Shown here one piece after another: positions 8,731 to 61,009 of a stretch of DNA of 64,000 nt. The DNA is from Thermococcus henrietii. GTDB lineage: Archaea; Methanobacteriota_B; Thermococci; Thermococcales; Thermococcaceae. Numbering within the stretch: the stretch's first letter is position 1; the number at the start of each line of letters is the position of its first letter. Below the pieces are notes generated by a model, which searched no databases, was not told the origin of the DNA, and saw only the letters and a list, made by a program, of their open reading frames with translations. The stretch spans positions 744,001 through 808,000 of the forward strand of contig NZ_LT900021.1 of NCBI RefSeq assembly GCF_900198835.1. The letters run 5' to 3'. The position numbers were made by a program, and so were the translations under genes.

Positions 8731-11628
8731 TCACTCCACGTAAACCGCCGGCTTCAACGGCATTGCCTGCTTCTTCTTTCCTCCTTTGTCCTCCTCGGGG
8801 TTGATTATCAGCTTGACGCCAAGCTCCTTCTCTATGAAGTCCTTGGCTTCCCTCAGCGCCTTTTCCTCATCTATCCTCTTGACCTCGAAGGCCCTCTCCT
8901 TGATGAGCCTCTGTATCAGCTTGCTTATCTCCTTGCCGTGCTTCCTCATCTCCGGGTCCTTCATAAGCTCGGCCATCGCCGACTTGAAGTCCCTCTTCTC
9001 GGCAACGACCTCAACGACCTTCCACTTCCACTCGGGGGCTGTGTAGACGTAAACCCTGCTCGGGTTCTCTATCTTCGCAACGCGGATTATCTCCTTGACG
9101 TCCTCAATGAAGGCCTTGACGAATTCCTCTTCCGCCTCTACCGTCTCGTCCCACCACCCGGGGACGGGCTCGGGCCAGGGAGCGAGGCTAACGAAGCCCT
9201 CTCCGCCCAGCTTCTCCCAGAGCTCCTCGCTGATGTGTGGCGTAAACGGCGCCATGAGCCTGACCCAGACGTCGGCGAGCTTTCTCAATACAAAGCGCTT
9301 GGCCTTGTCGTCTCTTCCCTCAGTTCTGCGCATGTACCAGCGCAGGTCGTTGAGGACCGTGTAGAACGCCCACTGGACGGCGGTTCTCGTCCTGAACTCC
9401 TCAAGGGCCTTAGTGGTTCCCTCGATGGCCTTGTTAAGGCGGTGGAGCATCCAGCGGTCGATGTTCTTGAGCTCGGTCTCCTCGGCCTCGTAGCCTGAGA
9501 ACTCGCTTATCAGCTCGTAGAAGCGCTCGACCTGCCTGCGGAGCTTTCCGACCTCCTTCCTGCGCCAGTCGAAGTCGCTGTCGTGCTCGGCAAGTCCCAT
9601 TATGTAGAGCCTGACAACATCTGCCCCGTTCTCCTCGATTGCGTCAATGAAGTTCAGCACGTTGCCCTTGCTCTTGCTCATCTTCTGTCCCTCGAGCGTT
9701 CCGAAGCCGTTTACGGCTATTCCCTTCGGCCAGTGCTTTCTCTTGAATATCGCCGTGTGGTTGAAGATGAAGAACGTCAGGTGGTTCGGGATGAGGTCCT
9801 TAGCTGAACAGCGCCAGTCGAGCGGGTACCAGTACTCGAACTCCTCTTTCATCTCGTGGATTGTTTCAGCCGGAATTCCGGTCTTCTCCTCGAGCTCCTT
9901 CTCGCGCTCCTCGCTGAAGTCCTCGCGGAAGATGTAGTCAAAGAACTCCCTCGTGAGCTTCTCGGGGTCGAGCTTGCCCTCCTCACGGAGCTTGTTTATG
10001 TGCCTGCTTATCGTGTAGTAGGCCATGTAGATGGTCGAGTCGCTCAGGCTCTCGATGACCCACTCAGGGTCCCAGGGCAGGGGTGTTCCAAGGCCGACCT
10101 TTCTCGCGCAGGCCTTCTTGTCGAGCCAGTCTATTACAGCCTCGAACTGCGCGCGCCTGCTCTCCGGGTAAATCGTCATGCTGGCGAGCGCTTCCCTTGC
10201 TTTCTCCTTCCACTCGGGGTTTCCGTAGTCGATGAACCACTGGTCGTGGATTATCTTGATGACGGCCTGGTTGCCGAAGCGCGAGATGACGGGCTTCTCC
10301 GCGAACTCGTACATTATCTCGGCAATGCCCTTCTCCATCAGCTCCTTGGCTATGAGGTCTTTTACCTCCTGGACCGGCTTGCCCGCGTAGGGCTCAATCT
10401 TAAAGCGCCCCTTGTGGTACTCGGCCTTGTAGATGTTCTTGGTAGCTTCTTCGAGCTTTTCTTTGTCCTTCTGGCTCTTCACGCCGAGCCTCTCGACTTC
10501 CTCAACGGCCGGGAACTCACCGTAGCCTTCGAGCTCTATCAGCGAGATGTAGGTGATGTCCTCCAAGACGCGCGGGTCGATGTCAAACTTGAGGAGCAGT
10601 TCAGTTTCCTTCTTCAGGTCTTCAAGGGCTATGTGGTCGAAGGGGGCGTGAGCGGGAACGCTCATGACTACTCCAGTCGCGTTGTCGGGGTCAACGAACT
10701 CCGCCGGCAGAATGATGACCTCGTCGCCCGTTACCGGGTTCTTCACGTACTTGCCGATGAGCTTCTCGCCCTTGAACTCCTCGATGACCTCTATCTCTCT
10801 ATCCTGGAAGGAGAGCTTGTAGGCCGCTTCCTTGCTGATTATCCAGGTCTCTTCCCGGTCACCGCGCCTGACTTTGGCTTTGACGTAGGTGGCGTTGGGG
10901 TTCAGCCACATGTTGGTTACCCCATAGACAGTCTCGGGCCTCAGCGTCGCGGCCGGGAGGTAGATTTTCTCCCCGTTCTCCTCCAGGATGAACTTGATTA
11001 TCACGTATTCGAGAATCTGGACGTCCTCACCCTCCATTATGTCGTGGTCGCCGAGGGGAGTTCCAACAACGGGGTCCCAGCGGACGCGGTGAGCGCCCTT
11101 AACGACCAGCCCCATGTCCTTGAGCGTCCAGAACTGCCACTCTATGAACTTGCTGAAGGGCGGGAAGAGGCTCGTTGTGTGGAACTCGCGCGTCCAGTCC
11201 ACGCTGAAGCCGGCCCTTATGAAGGTCTCCTTAGCGGCCTTCATGAAGTATTTAACGATTTCCTTTGGGTCCTCGAACTTCCAGAGAATATCCTCGGGCA
11301 CCTTGTAGACGTCGCGGTAGATGTGTATGGTCTTCGGGTCGCGGTTCTTTATGCGCTCGGCGATTCCGACTATCGGCGCGCCGGTGATGTGCCACGCCAT
11401 CGGAAACAGCACGTTGTAGCCCTGCATCCTCTTGAAGCGCGCTATGACGTCGGGAATCGTGTAGGTCCTCGCGTGGCCGACGTGGAGGTGGCCCGAGAGA
11501 TAGGGAAAGGCGACGGTTATGTAGAACTTCTTCTCCTTGGGCTTCGCGTTTCTGTCGGGTTCAAAAACCCTCTCCTCAAGCCAGCGCTTCTGCCACTTCT
11601 CCTCAATGGCCTTGAAGTCCACTTTCAT
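8731..11628 (-). CDS. leuS: Leucyl-tRNA synthetase
   Basis: Class I synthetase of the archaeal/eukaryal LeuRS type, 965 residues. HLHVGH (the HIGH signature) is at 47-52 and KMSKS near 647. Between them lies the CP1 editing insertion, with a TLRPETVYGVTN segment. The C-terminus carries the archaeal extension. The ATG at 11628 is chosen because GGAGGT is 7 nt upstream; a TTG two codons earlier would also be open. A folded leader lies upstream (11699-11751). The window also holds a tRNA-Leu (48760). Confidence 0.96.
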   Translation of the reverse strand: MKVDFKAIEEKWQKRWLEERVFEPDRNAKPKEKKFYITVAFPYLSGHLHVGHARTYTIPDVIARFKRMQGYNVLFPMAWHITGAPIVGIAERIKNRDPKTIHIYRDVYKVPEDILWKFEDPKEIVKYFMKAAKETFIRAGFSVDWTREFHTTSLFPPFSKFIEWQFWTLKDMGLVVKGAHRVRWDPVVGTPLGDHDIMEGEDVQILEYVIIKFILEENGEKIYLPAATLRPETVYGVTNMWLNPNATYVKAKVRRGDREETWIISKEAAYKLSFQDREIEVIEEFKGEKLIGKYVKNPVTGDEVIILPAEFVDPDNATGVVMSVPAHAPFDHIALEDLKKETELLLKFDIDPRVLEDITYISLIELEGYGEFPAVEEVERLGVKSQKDKEKLEEATKNIYKAEYHKGRFKIEPYAGKPVQEVKDLIAKELMEKGIAEIMYEFAEKPVISRFGNQAVIKIIHDQWFIDYGNPEWKEKAREALASMTIYPESRRAQFEAVIDWLDKKACARKVGLGTPLPWDPEWVIESLSDSTIYMAYYTISRHINKLREEGKLDPEKLTREFFDYIFREDFSEEREKELEEKTGIPAETIHEMKEEFEYWYPLDWRCSAKDLIPNHLTFFIFNHTAIFKRKHWPKGIAVNGFGTLEGQKMSKSKGNVLNFIDAIEENGADVVRLYIMGLAEHDSDFDWRRKEVGKLRRQVERFYELISEFSGYEAEETELKNIDRWMLHRLNKAIEGTTKALEEFRTRTAVQWAFYTVLNDLRWYMRRTEGRDDKAKRFVLRKLADVWVRLMAPFTPHISEELWEKLGGEGFVSLAPWPEPVPGWWDETVEAEEEFVKAFIEDVKEIIRVAKIENPSRVYVYTAPEWKWKVVEVVAEKRDFKSAMAELMKDPEMRKHGKEISKLIQRLIKERAFEVKRIDEEKALREAKDFIEKELGVKLIINPEEDKGGKKKQAMPLKPAVYVE

Positions 11629-58073: not shown

Positions 58074-58075
58074 TA

Positions 58076-58379
58076 GAAACTTTTGCCGAGCAAAAGTTTC
58101 ATCAAAGTTCGTGATTCCCTTTTGAAAAAAGCTTATTCTTTGAGTGGATTTCTTTTTGAGTTTGCTTCTTTGGAGAGTGAATTCTTTCAAAAGCGCCTTT
58201 TACAAGGGAGTTCGAGTCTTTTGCGCTCCTTTGGAGCGCGGTTTAAGTAGAACCCGCGTGGAAGACCTTAATCCAATGAATTCAAACTTTCAATGGCGGG
58301 CTTGATTTTGAAATCCCCTTACAAAGAGGGCTTTAACGAGGAATCACGAGCTTTTGGTGAAGCTTTTTCCAAAAGCTTC
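58076..58379 (+). repeat. Palindromic element B2 next to tRNA-Arg
   Basis: About 304 bp. Starts with a 10-bp hairpin AAACTTTTGC/GCAAAAGTTT (58077-58099) then CATCAAAGTTCGTGATTCC. Ends GGAATCACGAGC, TTTTGGTG and hairpin AAGCTTTT/AAAAGCTT (58360-58378). Central hairpin GCGCTCC/GGAGCGC. Same orientation to its tRNA as B1. Non-coding. Confidence 0.7.
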
Positions 58380-58380
58380 A

Positions 58381-58630
58381 GCGCTGGCGGAAGATGATGT
58401 GCTTTTTTTAAAAGTGCAAGTTTTAGTTGGGGTTTCTGCTGAATCTGCTCAACTTTTGGTGTTTCACTCTAAGAAGGCGCCCTTTGGGCGCCGGATGGTA
58501 AGTTGAAACTATCTTAGGGGTTTTGTTGTAGTGTTAAACCCTCTAAGGATTTGCTCTTTGGTTAGTGCACGATTGGCATTTACTCGTTAGAGAGAAGGGC
58601 ACTTGTTTAGTCAAGCTTTCTTAAAGCTTG
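58381..58630 (+). repeat. Palindromic element A2
   Basis: Begins GCGCTGGCGGAAG directly after B2. Shares with A1 the landmarks AGTGCAAGTTTT, TTTCACTCTAAGAAGGCGCC with its GGGCGCC partner, GGTAAGTTGAAACTATC, TAGTGTTAAACCC and TTAGTGCACGA. Non-coding; indels and scattered changes separate the copies. Confidence 0.65.
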
Positions 58631-58927
58631 TTCGCCTACGCGAAGTTTGACCAAGGTTCGTGATTTTCCTCTAAGAATGCAATTTTAAGGAGTTTGCGCT
58701 CTTAAATGATAGTGCTCTCAAGGAATTCTCTTCAGACGGAGCTATTCTGGAGGGGGTTTCTCTAAGAAGCGCTCCTTCGGAGCGCGAGAAAAGCAAACCC
58801 ACGCGAAAGAACTTCCAAAATCGAGAAATTCACAACCCACAAAAGCCATTAAGGCGCAAACACTCTCAATGGAGCCCCTACAAAAAGAATCACAAACTTT
58901 GATGAAACTTTGCAAAGGCAAAGTTTC
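58631..58927. repeat. Palindromic element B3
   Basis: About 297 bp. Left end TTCGC/GCGAA hairpin (58631-58644) then GTTTGACCAAGGTTCGTGATT. Right end GAATCACAAACTTTGATG then hairpin AAACTTTGC/GCAAAGTTT (58905-58926). Central hairpin GCGCTCC-TTC-GGAGCGC (58769-58785). It is less like B1 and B2 in the interior. Confidence 0.6.
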
Positions 58928-59390
58928 CTTGGTCAAGCTTTTCCAAAAGCTTGCTTGAGGGTGTTTCTTCTATTAGCGCCCTTCGGGCGCCTTCTTCGAG
59001 CGAATAGGAAAGCTTGACCAAAGAGTTAAACCCCCAGAGAGGACACCGGGAGAGTTGCATGCCCCCCTAATCCGCTGGTTTTGGGTTTACGTTCATGCTA
59101 ACTTTGAGGTGAAGTGTTTAACTTGGGACCCCCAAGGGTGCTGATATTGAAATTAAAACCACTTGAAGGGCTTTATTTTAGTGTCAAACCCCAATCAGAG
59201 TTGCACTTGGTTAGTGCATTACAATTTTGCTTGCTGGTGAGACGGGTGCTCTTTGCCCGGTTCCTTAAAGCCTGTCATGGGCGTTCCAACATGTTTGGTG
59301 TCTAGAGAGTAGTGCTGGTGTTCTCTTGAGCTTGAGAATAAATTATTTAAAACTCATTTCGACCATTGTCTTGTTACTTTTCGACACAGT
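58928..59390. repeat. Degenerate A-type remnants and gene-free DNA
   Basis: No gene found. 58930-59010 carries an inverted A-like piece with hairpin AAGCTTTT/AAAAGCTT and GCGCCC-TTC-GGGCGC. 59165-59290 resembles the end of element A (TTTTAGTGTCAAACCCC, TTGGTTAGTGCA, CCTTAAAGCCTGT). 59300-59390 is AT-rich spacer before the TROVE promoter. Confidence 0.45.
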
Positions 59391-59394
59391 AAAA

Positions 59395-59402
59395 TTTATA
59401 AA
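59395..59402 (+). promoter_or_regulatory. TATA box of the TROVE transcript
   Basis: TTTATAAA in an AAA-flanked context. With usual archaeal spacing the start falls near 59424, exactly where the paired structure begins. Confidence 0.6.
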
Positions 59403-59423
59403 GTTCTTGGATTAATCTATAGT

Positions 59424-59516
59424 GGCGGAAGTGCAGGCGGGGGATACTTCGCTAATCCTGTGCCGGCAGGAGGGCCGGTGGGGGTTCGCCTCCTTCCCCC
59501 GCCGATTTTCTCCGCC
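59424..59516 (+). ncRNA. Highly structured leader RNA, candidate archaeal Y RNA
   Basis: The two ends pair as GGCGGA (59424-59429) with TCCGCC (59511-59516). After a 6/7-nt internal loop an 8-bp GC stem forms, GGCGGGGG (59436-59443) with CCCCCGCC (59496-59503). Inside are CCGGC-AGGAGG-GCCGG (59463-59478) and GGGGG-TTCG-CCTCC (59480-59493). The AGGAGG loop could also pair with CCTCCT (59489-59494). It ends just before the ribosome-binding site of the TROVE gene. Bacterial Ro genes are often next to their Y RNA. It could instead be only a regulatory leader. Confidence 0.6.
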
Positions 59517-59527
59517 GGGGTGATATT

Positions 59528-61009
59528 GTGAAGTTCAACAGGAGGGCCGAGCTTCTCAACTTCGAAGGTGGGAAAACCTACTGCCCGAGCCCGGAGCTCG
59601 AGCTCTTTCTCAGGGCCGCGAGCAACCTCGTGAGGGAGCCGAGGTTCTACACCGGGGCTGAAGAGGGTTTTCAGGAACTCCTGGATGCGTTTGAGAGGGC
59701 GATACTGATAAACCCGGAGTTCGTTGCCAAGCTCGTCGTTTACGCCCGCGAGGAACTCTTGCTCCGCTCCCTCCCAACTCTCGGGACGGTTATCCTCGCC
59801 AACCACGAGAGGTACAAGGGCACAGGGGTACCGAGGAAGGTCGGTGAGAGGGTCTTCACGAGGCCGGATATGCTCACGGAAGCCCTCGCTATGCAACTCG
59901 CCCTCTTCGGAAAGCCGATACCTAACAGCCTCAAGAAGGTGTTGAGGAACGCCGTGACACAGTTTGACACATACCAGCTCGCCAAATACAGATGTGACCG
60001 CTGTGAGGTCAAGCTCAGGGACGTCATCCTGCTCACCCACCCAAAACCGAGGGACGAGGAACAGGAAAAAGCCTTCAGGGCGCTCATCGAGGGCAGACTC
60101 AAGAACATCCGCACGTGGGAGGCAAAGGTCTCCAAGGAAGGCTCAACCGCTGAAACATGGGGTGAGGTCCTCGAGGAGTTCATCAGGTATAAACAGGTCT
60201 TTGCCCTGTTAAGAAACCTTCGCAACTTGATAAAGCACGAGGTTGATACCAAGAAGTTCAGGAGGGCCATGGAGATACTTGCAGACCCGAAGGAGATGCG
60301 CAGGGCGAAGGTATACCCATACCGCTACCTGAGCGCATACTTCGCCCTGAAGGGGATGAAAATTAACTCCCCCACGCAGGCCGAGCTTAGAGATATCGCC
60401 CTCCGGGCCCTTCGAAAAGCCATAGAGGAGAGCATCGTTATGCTCCCCAACTTCGATGGCAGAAACCTTGTCCTCGTCGACGTCAGCGGCTCGATGGATT
60501 TCCCCCTCAGCAGGAGGAGCAGGATAACCCTGAAGATGGTCGCCGCCTTCTACGGCGCGATACTGGCCAAGAAGTACGACACGGCGATAGTAGCATTCGC
60601 AGACGAATACCGCTGGATACCAAAGGGGGAGAGCATCTTTGAAACCGCAGAGGACGTCTTAAGGAGTAGGATTGGCTACGCCACCTACGCCTACAAACCG
60701 ATGGAAGAAGTCCTGCGGAAGGGAGAGTACTTCGACAGGATTTTCGTGCTCACGGATATGGTCGTCTACTCCGAGAACTACGGCGACGACGCGTTCCAGC
60801 GCGCCGTGAGACAATATAGGAAGACTATTAACCCCGAGATGAGGCTCATCACGTGGGATTTGGCCGGCTACGGCCAGGTCTACCTTGAGGAGCACGACGT
60901 CAGGAACATCTACATCGGCGGCTTCACCGAGAGGGTCTTCGACCTCGTGAAGTACCTCGAAGAGGGGAACAAAATAGTTGAGATAATAAACGAAAGGGTT
61001 TCGCTTTAA
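59528..61009 (+). CDS. TROVE-domain (Ro60/Rsr-like) RNA-binding protein
   Basis: 493 residues from GTG 59528, with GGGGTGAT upstream. Residues about 1-300 form a TROVE-type helical-repeat ring (KLVVYAREELLLRSLPTLG, LAKYRCDRCEVKLRDVILLTHPK, ALLRNLRNLIKHEVD). Residues 312-490 form a von Willebrand A domain with an intact MIDAS, Asp318-x-Ser320-x-Ser322 in VDVSGSMD, and VLTDMVVYSE later. Ro proteins bind Y RNAs and misfolded RNAs and take part in RNA quality control. Length is close to bacterial Rsr. The upstream folded RNA strengthens the assignment. Confidence 0.85.
   Translation: MKFNRRAELLNFEGGKTYCPSPELELFLRAASNLVREPRFYTGAEEGFQELLDAFERAILINPEFVAKLVVYAREELLLRSLPTLGTVILANHERYKGTGVPRKVGERVFTRPDMLTEALAMQLALFGKPIPNSLKKVLRNAVTQFDTYQLAKYRCDRCEVKLRDVILLTHPKPRDEEQEKAFRALIEGRLKNIRTWEAKVSKEGSTAETWGEVLEEFIRYKQVFALLRNLRNLIKHEVDTKKFRRAMEILADPKEMRRAKVYPYRYLSAYFALKGMKINSPTQAELRDIALRALRKAIEESIVMLPNFDGRNLVLVDVSGSMDFPLSRRSRITLKMVAAFYGAILAKKYDTAIVAFADEYRWIPKGESIFETAEDVLRSRIGYATYAYKPMEEVLRKGEYFDRIFVLTDMVVYSENYGDDAFQRAVRQYRKTINPEMRLITWDLAGYGQVYLEEHDVRNIYIGGFTERVFDLVKYLEEGNKIVEIINERVSL

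What the first reader, a model, noticed from the sequence alone, without database searches (positions are those of the whole stretch)
59395..61009. Archaeal Ro60/TROVE gene with an attached Y-RNA-like structured RNA
A TATA box at 59395 sets a start near 59424. From there GGCGGA...TCCGCC and an 8-bp GC stem close a compact RNA of about 95 nt with a UUCG hairpin, just before a TROVE+vWA gene. In bacteria Rsr genes commonly sit beside their Y RNA, and Ro-Y particles take part in RNA quality control. A closing stem with an internal loop, then branched hairpins, is the Y-RNA plan. An archaeal Ro particle with its own RNA is, as far as I know, little described.
Basis: partly seen in the sequence, partly recalled or inferred. 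Interest (0 to 1): 0.88.

Follow-up and report, generated by a model that had tools for sequence, protein, structure and literature searches.

The report
Archaeal Y-RNA-like partner of Ro60
In front of a gene for a Ro60-type RNA-binding protein in a heat-loving archaeon sits a 93-nucleotide structured RNA belonging to a family that, in archaeal genomes sampled here, appears only beside such genes, which suggests that archaea too build the Ro–Y RNA particles known from animals and bacteria.

Summary
Window 59424-59516 encodes a 93-nt structured RNA (P1 GGCGGA/UCCGCC; internal loop AGUGCA/GAUUUUC; P2 GGCGGGGGA/UCCCCCGCC; AUACUUCG; branched hairpins) ending exactly at the Shine-Dalgarno of a full-length TROVE-vWA (Ro60) gene. 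Only 6 of 61 Thermococcus species have the gene; the five with a readable leader all have the RNA, and no other of 94 Thermococcaceae genomes has it. A covariance model built only from haloarchaeal RNAs beside haloarchaeal TROVE genes finds all five Thermococcus leaders (E 1.6e-5 to 6e-4); the Thermococcus model finds haloarchaeal copies in return. In haloarchaea the RNAs usually stand in tandem upstream of TROVE. P1 and P2 covary strongly (230 double-change cells against 55 shuffled) while the loops nCGA/RRUUUYC and the (A/U)UnCUUC after P2 stay fixed. In 116 Halobacteria genomes, TROVE and RNA occur in the same 11. No Rfam family, including YrlA and Deinococcus Y RNA, matches. Best reading: an archaeal Y-RNA class, apparently undescribed, forming Ro–Y particles; in Thermococcus and some haloarchaea and haloviruses it is also the mRNA leader, so autoregulation is plausible. 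Expression and binding are untested.

The parts
59374..59392 (+). Conserved upstream element TTACTTTTCGACACAGTAA (TTACT...AGTAA inverted ends), just upstream of / touching the BRE
   Evidence: Identical in all five TROVE loci and found nowhere else in 61 Thermococcus genomes at up to 2 mismatches
59395..59402 (+). TATA box TTTATAAA; predicts transcription start near 59424, the first base of P1
   Evidence: Sequence; spacing to P1 21-22 nt in five species. Start site inferred, not measured
59424..59516 (+). Archaeal Y-RNA-like RNA, 93 nt (whole element)
   Evidence: z -3.5; found by a haloarchaea-only covariance model, top hit of the window; conserved in five species
59424..59429 (+). P1 5' strand GGCGGA (GGCGGG in the other four species)
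   Evidence: Pairs with 59511-59516; homologous helix covaries in the archaeal family
59430..59435 (+). 5' side of internal loop, AGUGCA (nCGA in haloarchaea)
59436..59444 (+). P2 5' strand GGCGGGGGA
   Evidence: Pairs with 59495-59503; homologous helix covaries
59444..59451 (+). Fixed motif AUACUUCG at the inner end of P2
   Evidence: Same position in haloarchaeal RNAs as (A/U)UnCUUC, and UUaCuuC after P2 in the Rfam Deinococcus Y RNA consensus
59462..59479 (+). Inner hairpin b (GCCGGC/GCCGGT), one compensatory change in G062
59480..59493 (+). Inner hairpin c GGGGG-UUCG-CCUCC; loop not conserved
59495..59503 (+). P2 3' strand UCCCCCGCC
59504..59510 (+). 3' side of internal loop GAUUUUC (RRUUUYC in the archaeal family; identical 7-mer in many haloarchaeal copies)
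59511..59516 (+). P1 3' strand UCCGCC
59517..59524 (+). Shine-Dalgarno GGGGUGAU, directly abutting P1
   Evidence: Sequence; same arrangement in G148, HGTV-1 and UViG L111 leaders
59528..61009 (+). TROVE + vWA (Ro60-like) protein, 493 aa, GTG start
   Evidence: Pfam TROVE 3.9e-15, vWA_Ro60 2.4e-10; closest solved structure Thermus phage phiLo Ro60, E 7e-36; predicted fold matches Ro60 and Rsr

Best explanation
The element is an archaeal Y-RNA-like RNA and the downstream gene its Ro60 partner. Shown here: one promoter precedes RNA and gene; the RNA is a closed P1 - asymmetric internal loop - P2 - branched inner domain under strong selection; the same architecture and loop motifs recur beside TROVE genes across haloarchaea, with covarying stems and strict co-occurrence. 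Inferred: transcription starts at P1; the TROVE ring binds the P1/internal-loop/P2 stem on its outer surface; the variable inner domain gates the central channel or tethers an exonuclease (as Deinococcus Y RNA tethers PNPase; in archaea the exosome would be the natural candidate), giving an RNA-surveillance particle. In Thermococcus, where the only copy abuts the Shine-Dalgarno, the RNA is either cut from the leader or stays in cis, so that surplus Ro protein binding it would shut off its own translation.
For: Protein identity: (MIDAS residues D318, S320, S322, T386, D410 invariant across 29 relatives). RNA real and selected. Thermococcus RNA found only with TROVE, 5 of 94 Thermococcaceae genomes, one copy each. 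Haloarchaea-only model R2 hits all five Thermococcus leaders and is top in the unfiltered window (26.3 against 21.8 bits), with no hit below E 0.3 in 24 bacterial/phage TROVE loci. Reciprocal: Thermococcus model R1 hits haloarchaeal copies at E 6e-4 to 2e-3. 125 copies in 41 haloarchaeal loci; all 36 hits in 12 whole haloarchaeal genomes lie near a TROVE gene; the same 11 of 116 Halobacteria genomes carry TROVE and RNA at E < 1e-5. Covariation: 96.9% of cells paired against 75.1% shuffled, 230 double-change cells against 55, 20 of 22 pairs with two-sided change.
Against: No expression, binding or processing data exist here. Within Thermococcus P1 and P2 hardly vary, so they say little by covariation. 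No Rfam Y RNA family matches. The Thermococcus RNA has no tRNA-like T-loop, which the bacterial Y RNAs usually have. It lies in the leader, so co-occurrence within Thermococcus alone is expected for any leader. The cross-lineage hits are modest (21-26 bits; E-values rough) and the four sequences of R2 were chosen for similar length after the motif had been seen. The window's second R2 hit (21.8 bits) is as strong as the weakest Thermococcus leader.
Confidence: 0.77

Rival explanations
1. A purely cis-acting leader: the structure next to the Shine-Dalgarno regulates TROVE translation (autogenous control by the protein, or a temperature or ligand response) and no separate RNA is made.
For: P1 ends directly at the Shine-Dalgarno. 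Leaders of the same class stand directly before the start codon in haloarchaeon G148, halovirus HGTV-1 and UViG L111. No terminator or obvious processing site separates RNA and mRNA.
Against: In most haloarchaeal loci the RNAs form tandem arrays separated from the TROVE start by a tRNA-Arg gene, so they cannot all act as leaders. Several copies per gene fit a trans partner. Bacterial relatives of the gene have YrlA/Deinococcus-Y-like RNAs nearby.
Confidence: 0.15
2. A tRNA-derived or tRNA-Sec-like cloverleaf (decayed tRNA) that happens to precede the gene.
For: Sub-threshold Rfam tRNA-Sec match, 22.9 bits, to 59436-59503; a 9-bp acceptor-like stem and branched hairpins.
Against: Gathering score is 47; the T-loop equivalent varies among species (UUCG, ACGUU, UCUAU); ARAGORN calls no tRNA there; the conserved parts are the outer P1 and internal loop, outside any tRNA.
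Confidence: 0.03
3. A structured leader unrelated to Ro60 biology; its likeness to haloarchaeal RNAs is coincidence of GC-rich stems.
For: Cross-lineage model scores are modest (21-26 bits, rough E-values), and the second hit in the window reaches 21.8 bits.
Against: All five leaders hit with the same model at the expected place, the reverse search also lands on the haloarchaeal copies, and the fixed motifs AUACUUCG and GAUUUUC sit at the same structural positions. Bacterial/phage TROVE loci give no such hit.
Confidence: 0.05

Closest known systems
Deinococcus radiodurans Y RNA (Rfam RF01053) with Rsr
   Same: Encoded beside a Ro60 homologue; paired ends, internal loop, long second stem; UUaCuuC right after P2 in the Rfam consensus against AUACUUCG here; similar length
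   Different: No Rfam match for the window RNA; internal-loop sequences differ; no T-arm in the Thermococcus RNA; here the RNA abuts the start of the Ro60 gene
YrlA / bacterial Y-RNA-like RNA (Rfam RF02553)
   Same: P1 - internal loop - P2 - inner domain plan; found next to TROVE genes (also near the Bacteroidetes relatives fetched here)
   Different: YrlA inner domain is a tRNA mimic with T- and D-arm sequence; Thermococcus RNA lacks it; no Rfam match. Haloarchaeal copies do carry a T-arm
Vertebrate Y RNAs (Rfam RF00019) with Ro60
   Same: 80-110-nt RNA, most conserved in the stems, with a bulged lower stem where Ro60 binds and a variable inner loop (PMC4726728)
   Different: No Rfam match; polymerase III genes with U-tails that bind La; not linked to the Ro60 gene
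Haloarchaeal TROVE genes in tRNA gene clusters (PMC6333295)
   Same: Same protein family (31-33% identity) and, as found here, the same RNA class directly upstream
   Different: That paper reports the gene in 20 of 29 clusters; the passage found does not mention an RNA. Thermococcus has a single RNA copy as leader and no tRNA array
Thermus phage phiLo Ro60 (PDB 9kop, 9l5y)
   Same: Closest solved structure of the protein (E 7e-36; TM 0.74)
   Different: Phage protein of a bacterium; no RNA of this class found in its locus

Membership tests
Ro60/Rsr (TROVE-vWA) protein | TROVE and Ro60-type vWA domains | tested here: met
   Pfam PF05731 3.9e-15 and PF25045 2.4e-10, both above cut-off
Ro60/Rsr (TROVE-vWA) protein | HEAT-repeat ring closed by a vWA domain | tested here: met
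   AlphaFold2 model pLDDT 85; best PDB matches phiLo Ro60, Xenopus Ro, human Ro60, Deinococcus Rsr
Ro60/Rsr (TROVE-vWA) protein | MIDAS motif DxSxS...T...D | tested here: met
   D318, S320, S322, T386, D410 invariant in 29 relatives
Ro60/Rsr (TROVE-vWA) protein | Binds a Y RNA and misfolded RNAs | not testable with these tools
   Needs biochemistry
Y RNA (functional class: Ro60-bound small RNA) | Gene linked to a Ro60 gene (prokaryotic Y RNAs) | tested here: met
   11 nt upstream here; co-occurrence 5 of 94 Thermococcaceae and the same 11 of 116 Halobacteria
Y RNA (functional class: Ro60-bound small RNA) | Paired ends forming a conserved lower stem interrupted by bulge/internal loop, second stem, variable inner domain, about 80-150 nt | tested here: met
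Y RNA (functional class: Ro60-bound small RNA) | Discrete stable transcript | not testable with these tools
   No transcript data; promoter spacing suggests 5' end at P1 only
Y RNA (functional class: Ro60-bound small RNA) | Physically bound by Ro60 | not testable with these tools
   Needs pull-down
Bacterial YrlA (RF02553) | Match to the Rfam model | tested here: not met
   No hit at gathering or E up to 5
Bacterial YrlA (RF02553) | tRNA-like inner domain with conserved T-loop | tested here: not met
   Thermococcus loops vary and no tRNA is called; haloarchaeal copies do have GGUUCNANNCC T-arms
Deinococcus Y RNA (RF01053) | Match to the Rfam model | tested here: not met
   No hit
Vertebrate Y RNA (RF00019) | Match to the Rfam model | tested here: not met
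   No hit
Archaeal TROVE-linked RNA class defined here (R2) | P1 - nCGA - P2 - (A/U)UnCUUC - inner - P2' - RRUUUYC - P1' | tested here: met
   R2 hits all five Thermococcus leaders; 3' loop and AUACUUCG match; the 5' loop departs (AGUGCA instead of nCGA)

The most novel reading that the evidence does not exclude
Archaea of at least two phyla carry a previously undescribed Y-RNA class that forms Ro60 particles, with dual use: the same RNA element serves as the trans partner (tandem arrays in haloarchaea) and as the ribosome-site-abutting leader of the Ro60 mRNA (Thermococcus, haloarchaeon G148, haloviruses HGTV-1 and L111), so that Ro protein titrates its own translation against free Y RNA. The spread on plasmids, in tRNA arrays and in haloviruses would make it a mobile RNA-surveillance or tRNA-protection module.
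Probability: 0.4. Interest if true: 0.87.

Novelty: new variant of a known kind. Interest (0 to 1): 0.76.

Why it matters
Y RNAs are described from animals and bacteria. If this holds, Ro–Y particles exist in the third domain, with a defined candidate Ro-binding element (internal loop nCGA/RRUUUYC between two covarying stems) that can be tested directly. Thermococcus species are hyperthermophiles, where RNA misfolding and quality control are pressing and where proteins and RNPs tend to be stable enough for structural work. The leader position also makes a simple feedback circuit between a Ro protein and its own Y RNA testable.

Tried and rejected
Genome-contig scan with the single protein found nothing (near relatives are left out of that collection), so archaeal relatives were reached through plasmids/phages and then an alignment query. 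The first AlphaFold model with six close sequences was poor (pLDDT 54) and was not used. The Thermococcus model R1 did not hit the first eight haloarchaeal/Thermus loci significantly; it did on other copies. Rfam tRNA-Sec match rejected (below cut-off, T-loop not conserved). A first haloarchaeal alignment with HGTV-1 misaligned the virus leader and was dropped. Three weak R2 hits in Halobacteria genomes without TROVE (G134, G153, G167; E 1e-4 to 5e-4) were judged noise; the stretches look like coding DNA and were not followed further. The pattern ATACTTCG...RRTTTTC without the stems has background matches in other Thermococcus genomes, so it is not diagnostic alone. Key papers and reviews (PMC4201824, PMC6542706, PMC10870794) are not held, so a statement about archaeal Y RNAs there cannot be excluded.

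Full report
WHAT IS THERE. At 59374-59530 the order is: a 19-bp element TTACTTTTCGACACAGTAA, a TATA box (59395-59402), a 93-nt structured RNA (59424-59516), a Shine-Dalgarno GGGGUGAU (59517-59524) that abuts the RNA, and the GTG start (59528) of a 493-aa TROVE-vWA protein. The RNA folds at -54.5 kcal/mol, z -3.5, no shuffle of 200 as low. Rfam has no match at gathering threshold, and the best sub-threshold match is tRNA-Sec at 22.9 bits against a cut-off of 47.

CONSERVATION WITHIN THE GENUS. The protein is patchy: 6 of 61 genomes of the genus and none of the other sampled genera. One of the six is cut by a contig end (G075; contig of 9,717 bases, match ending at 9,716) and has no leader to inspect. 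The other five leaders align: the upstream element and TATA box are nearly invariant, the spacer to P1 varies in sequence but keeps 21-22 nt, the RNA's outer strands GGCGG(A/G)AGUGCAGGCGGGGGAUACUUCGC and UCCCCCGCCGAUUUUCUCCGCC are nearly invariant, and the inner hairpins vary in sequence and length while keeping pairing (one G-C to A-U compensatory change in hairpin b). Fourfold-degenerate codon sites of the neighbouring gene are 49-80% identical over the same pairs of species, so the leader is under strong selection. A model of the Thermococcus RNA (R1) finds it in exactly those five of 94 Thermococcaceae genomes, one copy each. The 19-bp element occurs only at these five loci among 61 genomes, at up to 2 mismatches.

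THE PROTEIN. Pfam places TROVE and Ro60-vWA domains. The closest solved structure is a 500-aa TROVE protein (E 7e-36 over residues 11-482), identified as the Ro60 of Thermus phage phiLo. With 29 relatives AlphaFold2 gives pLDDT 85, and Foldseek returns phiLo Ro60 (TM 0.74), Xenopus and human Ro60 (0.61-0.70) and Deinococcus Rsr (0.69). The MIDAS residues are invariant. It is a full-length Ro60 homologue.

THE WIDER FAMILY. TROVE relatives were found on haloarchaeal plasmids and in halovirus HGTV-1, then in 80 chromosomal or plasmid loci, about half haloarchaeal. In haloarchaea TROVE lies inside tRNA arrays, with tRNA-Arg just upstream and often tRNA-Gly downstream, as PMC6333295 reported for 20 of 29 archaeal tRNA clusters. 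Reading the DNA between tRNAs and TROVE showed RNAs of one plan: P1 - UCGA - P2 - ... - P2' - (A/G)(A/G)UUUUC - P1'. Some are 89-93 nt long, like the Thermococcus RNA; one, L030:2237-2329, even has AUACUUCG directly after P2.

FORMAL TESTS. A covariance model from four haloarchaeal RNAs only (R2) (a) finds 125 copies in 41 haloarchaeal TROVE loci, usually two to four in tandem upstream on the same strand; (b) finds all five Thermococcus leaders, E 1.6e-5 to 6e-4 in 63 kb, and ranks the target first in the unfiltered 64-kb window (26.3 bits; next 21.8); (c) finds nothing below E 0.3 in 24 bacterial and phage TROVE loci. In reverse, R1 finds haloarchaeal copies at E 6e-4 to 2e-3. On 59 aligned copies, 96.9% of pair cells are standard pairs (75.1% shuffled, 31-58% when slid), 230 cells show two-sided changes (55 shuffled), and 20 of 22 pairs have two-sided changes, while the internal loop and the (A/U)UnCUUC motif stay fixed. 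The alignment was fitted to the structure, which favours it, but the margins are large. In 12 whole haloarchaeal genomes all 36 hits lie near a TROVE gene. In an even sample of 116 Halobacteria genomes, TROVE occurs in 11 and R2 hits below E 1e-5 in the same 11; three other genomes give one weak hit each (E 1e-4 to 5e-4), judged noise.

LEADER COPIES. The Thermococcus arrangement (RNA ending at the Shine-Dalgarno of TROVE) recurs: haloarchaeon G148 has RNAs of the class before TROVE, the last ending in CCGCGC-GGUGAUACAG-AUG; halovirus HGTV-1 has CGGU-GCGA-GGGAGUCGG-AUACUUC...CCGACUUCC-AAUUUCA-ACCG followed by UGGUGAUACAAA-AUG (read by eye, R2 does not call it); UViG L111 has GAAGGG-UUAGC-CUUGAGGG-UUACUUCG...CCCUCGGG-UAAUUUC-CCCUUC just before its start codon (descriptor search, not called by R2).

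RELATION TO KNOWN Y RNAS. Vertebrate Y RNAs carry Ro60's binding site in a bulged lower stem; stems are conserved and the inner loop varies (PMC4726728). The archaeal RNA shows the same division. In bacteria, Y RNAs lie beside Ro60 genes and commonly have a tRNA-like domain (Chen et al. 2014, cited in PMC4726728; details from memory). As a positive control, Bacteroidetes/Balneola TROVE loci fetched here gave YrlA and Deinococcus-Y matches near the gene, with low E-values though below Rfam's cut-off. The Rfam Deinococcus consensus has UUaCuuC after P2, close to AUACUUCG here. The Thermococcus RNA lacks a tRNA-like T-loop, whereas haloarchaeal copies have one. So it works like a Y RNA by anatomy and linkage, but it is not a member of any Rfam Y family, and the defining biochemical feature, Ro60 binding, is untested.

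MECHANISM. Shown: promoter ahead of RNA and gene, structure under selection, family-wide linkage to TROVE, covarying stems around fixed loops. Inferred: binding of the P1/loop/P2 stem to the TROVE ring; a role in RNA surveillance; release of the RNA from the leader, or autoregulation when it stays. Pure cis-regulation is the main rival; it fits the Thermococcus locus but not the haloarchaeal arrays.

NOVELTY. Archaeal TROVE genes are on record (PMC6333295; Borgs, PMC11208441). No paper found in the library describes an archaeal Y RNA, but the main reviews are not held, so priority is not settled.

Noticed in passing
window 59374-59392: 19-bp element with inverted ends, perfectly conserved and exclusive to the five TROVE promoters in the genus; possibly an operator for a dedicated regulator.
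   Followed up: partly
window 58075-59040: About 1 kb without long ORFs between tRNA-Arg and the TROVE promoter, full of diverged direct and inverted repeats (up to 48-nt arms) and TTCGG hairpins; looks like decayed repeat or mobile DNA.
   Followed up: no
L004 (genome G057): The TROVE gene of G057 appears frameshifted near residue 440 (C-terminal part in another frame), though its leader RNA is intact; broken gene or sequencing error.
   Followed up: no
L022-L026 and most haloarchaeal loci: A separate hairpin (GGAGUCGCCUGUUGCGGCUCC) directly before the Shine-Dalgarno of TROVE, downstream of the last tRNA-Arg; may be a second control element.
   Followed up: no
L002, L003, L004, L006: In four of the five Thermococcus species the TROVE locus lies beside a tRNA-Arg(GCG)/tRNA-Gly(GCC) pair; haloarchaeal TROVE genes also sit between tRNA-Arg and tRNA-Gly. 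Possibly a shared integration habit.
   Followed up: partly
L117:2771-2916 (IMG/VR contig): A phage TROVE gene with an upstream RNA of similar plan (P1 - UGCAA - P2 - UUACUUC ... AAUUUUU - P1') and a tRNA-like inner domain; may link the bacterial and archaeal classes.
   Followed up: partly
L027 (Allomeiothermus plasmid): TROVE is followed directly by an RNB-domain ribonuclease gene, next to CRISPR cas1/cas2; a nuclease partner for a Ro protein in a bacterium.
   Followed up: no
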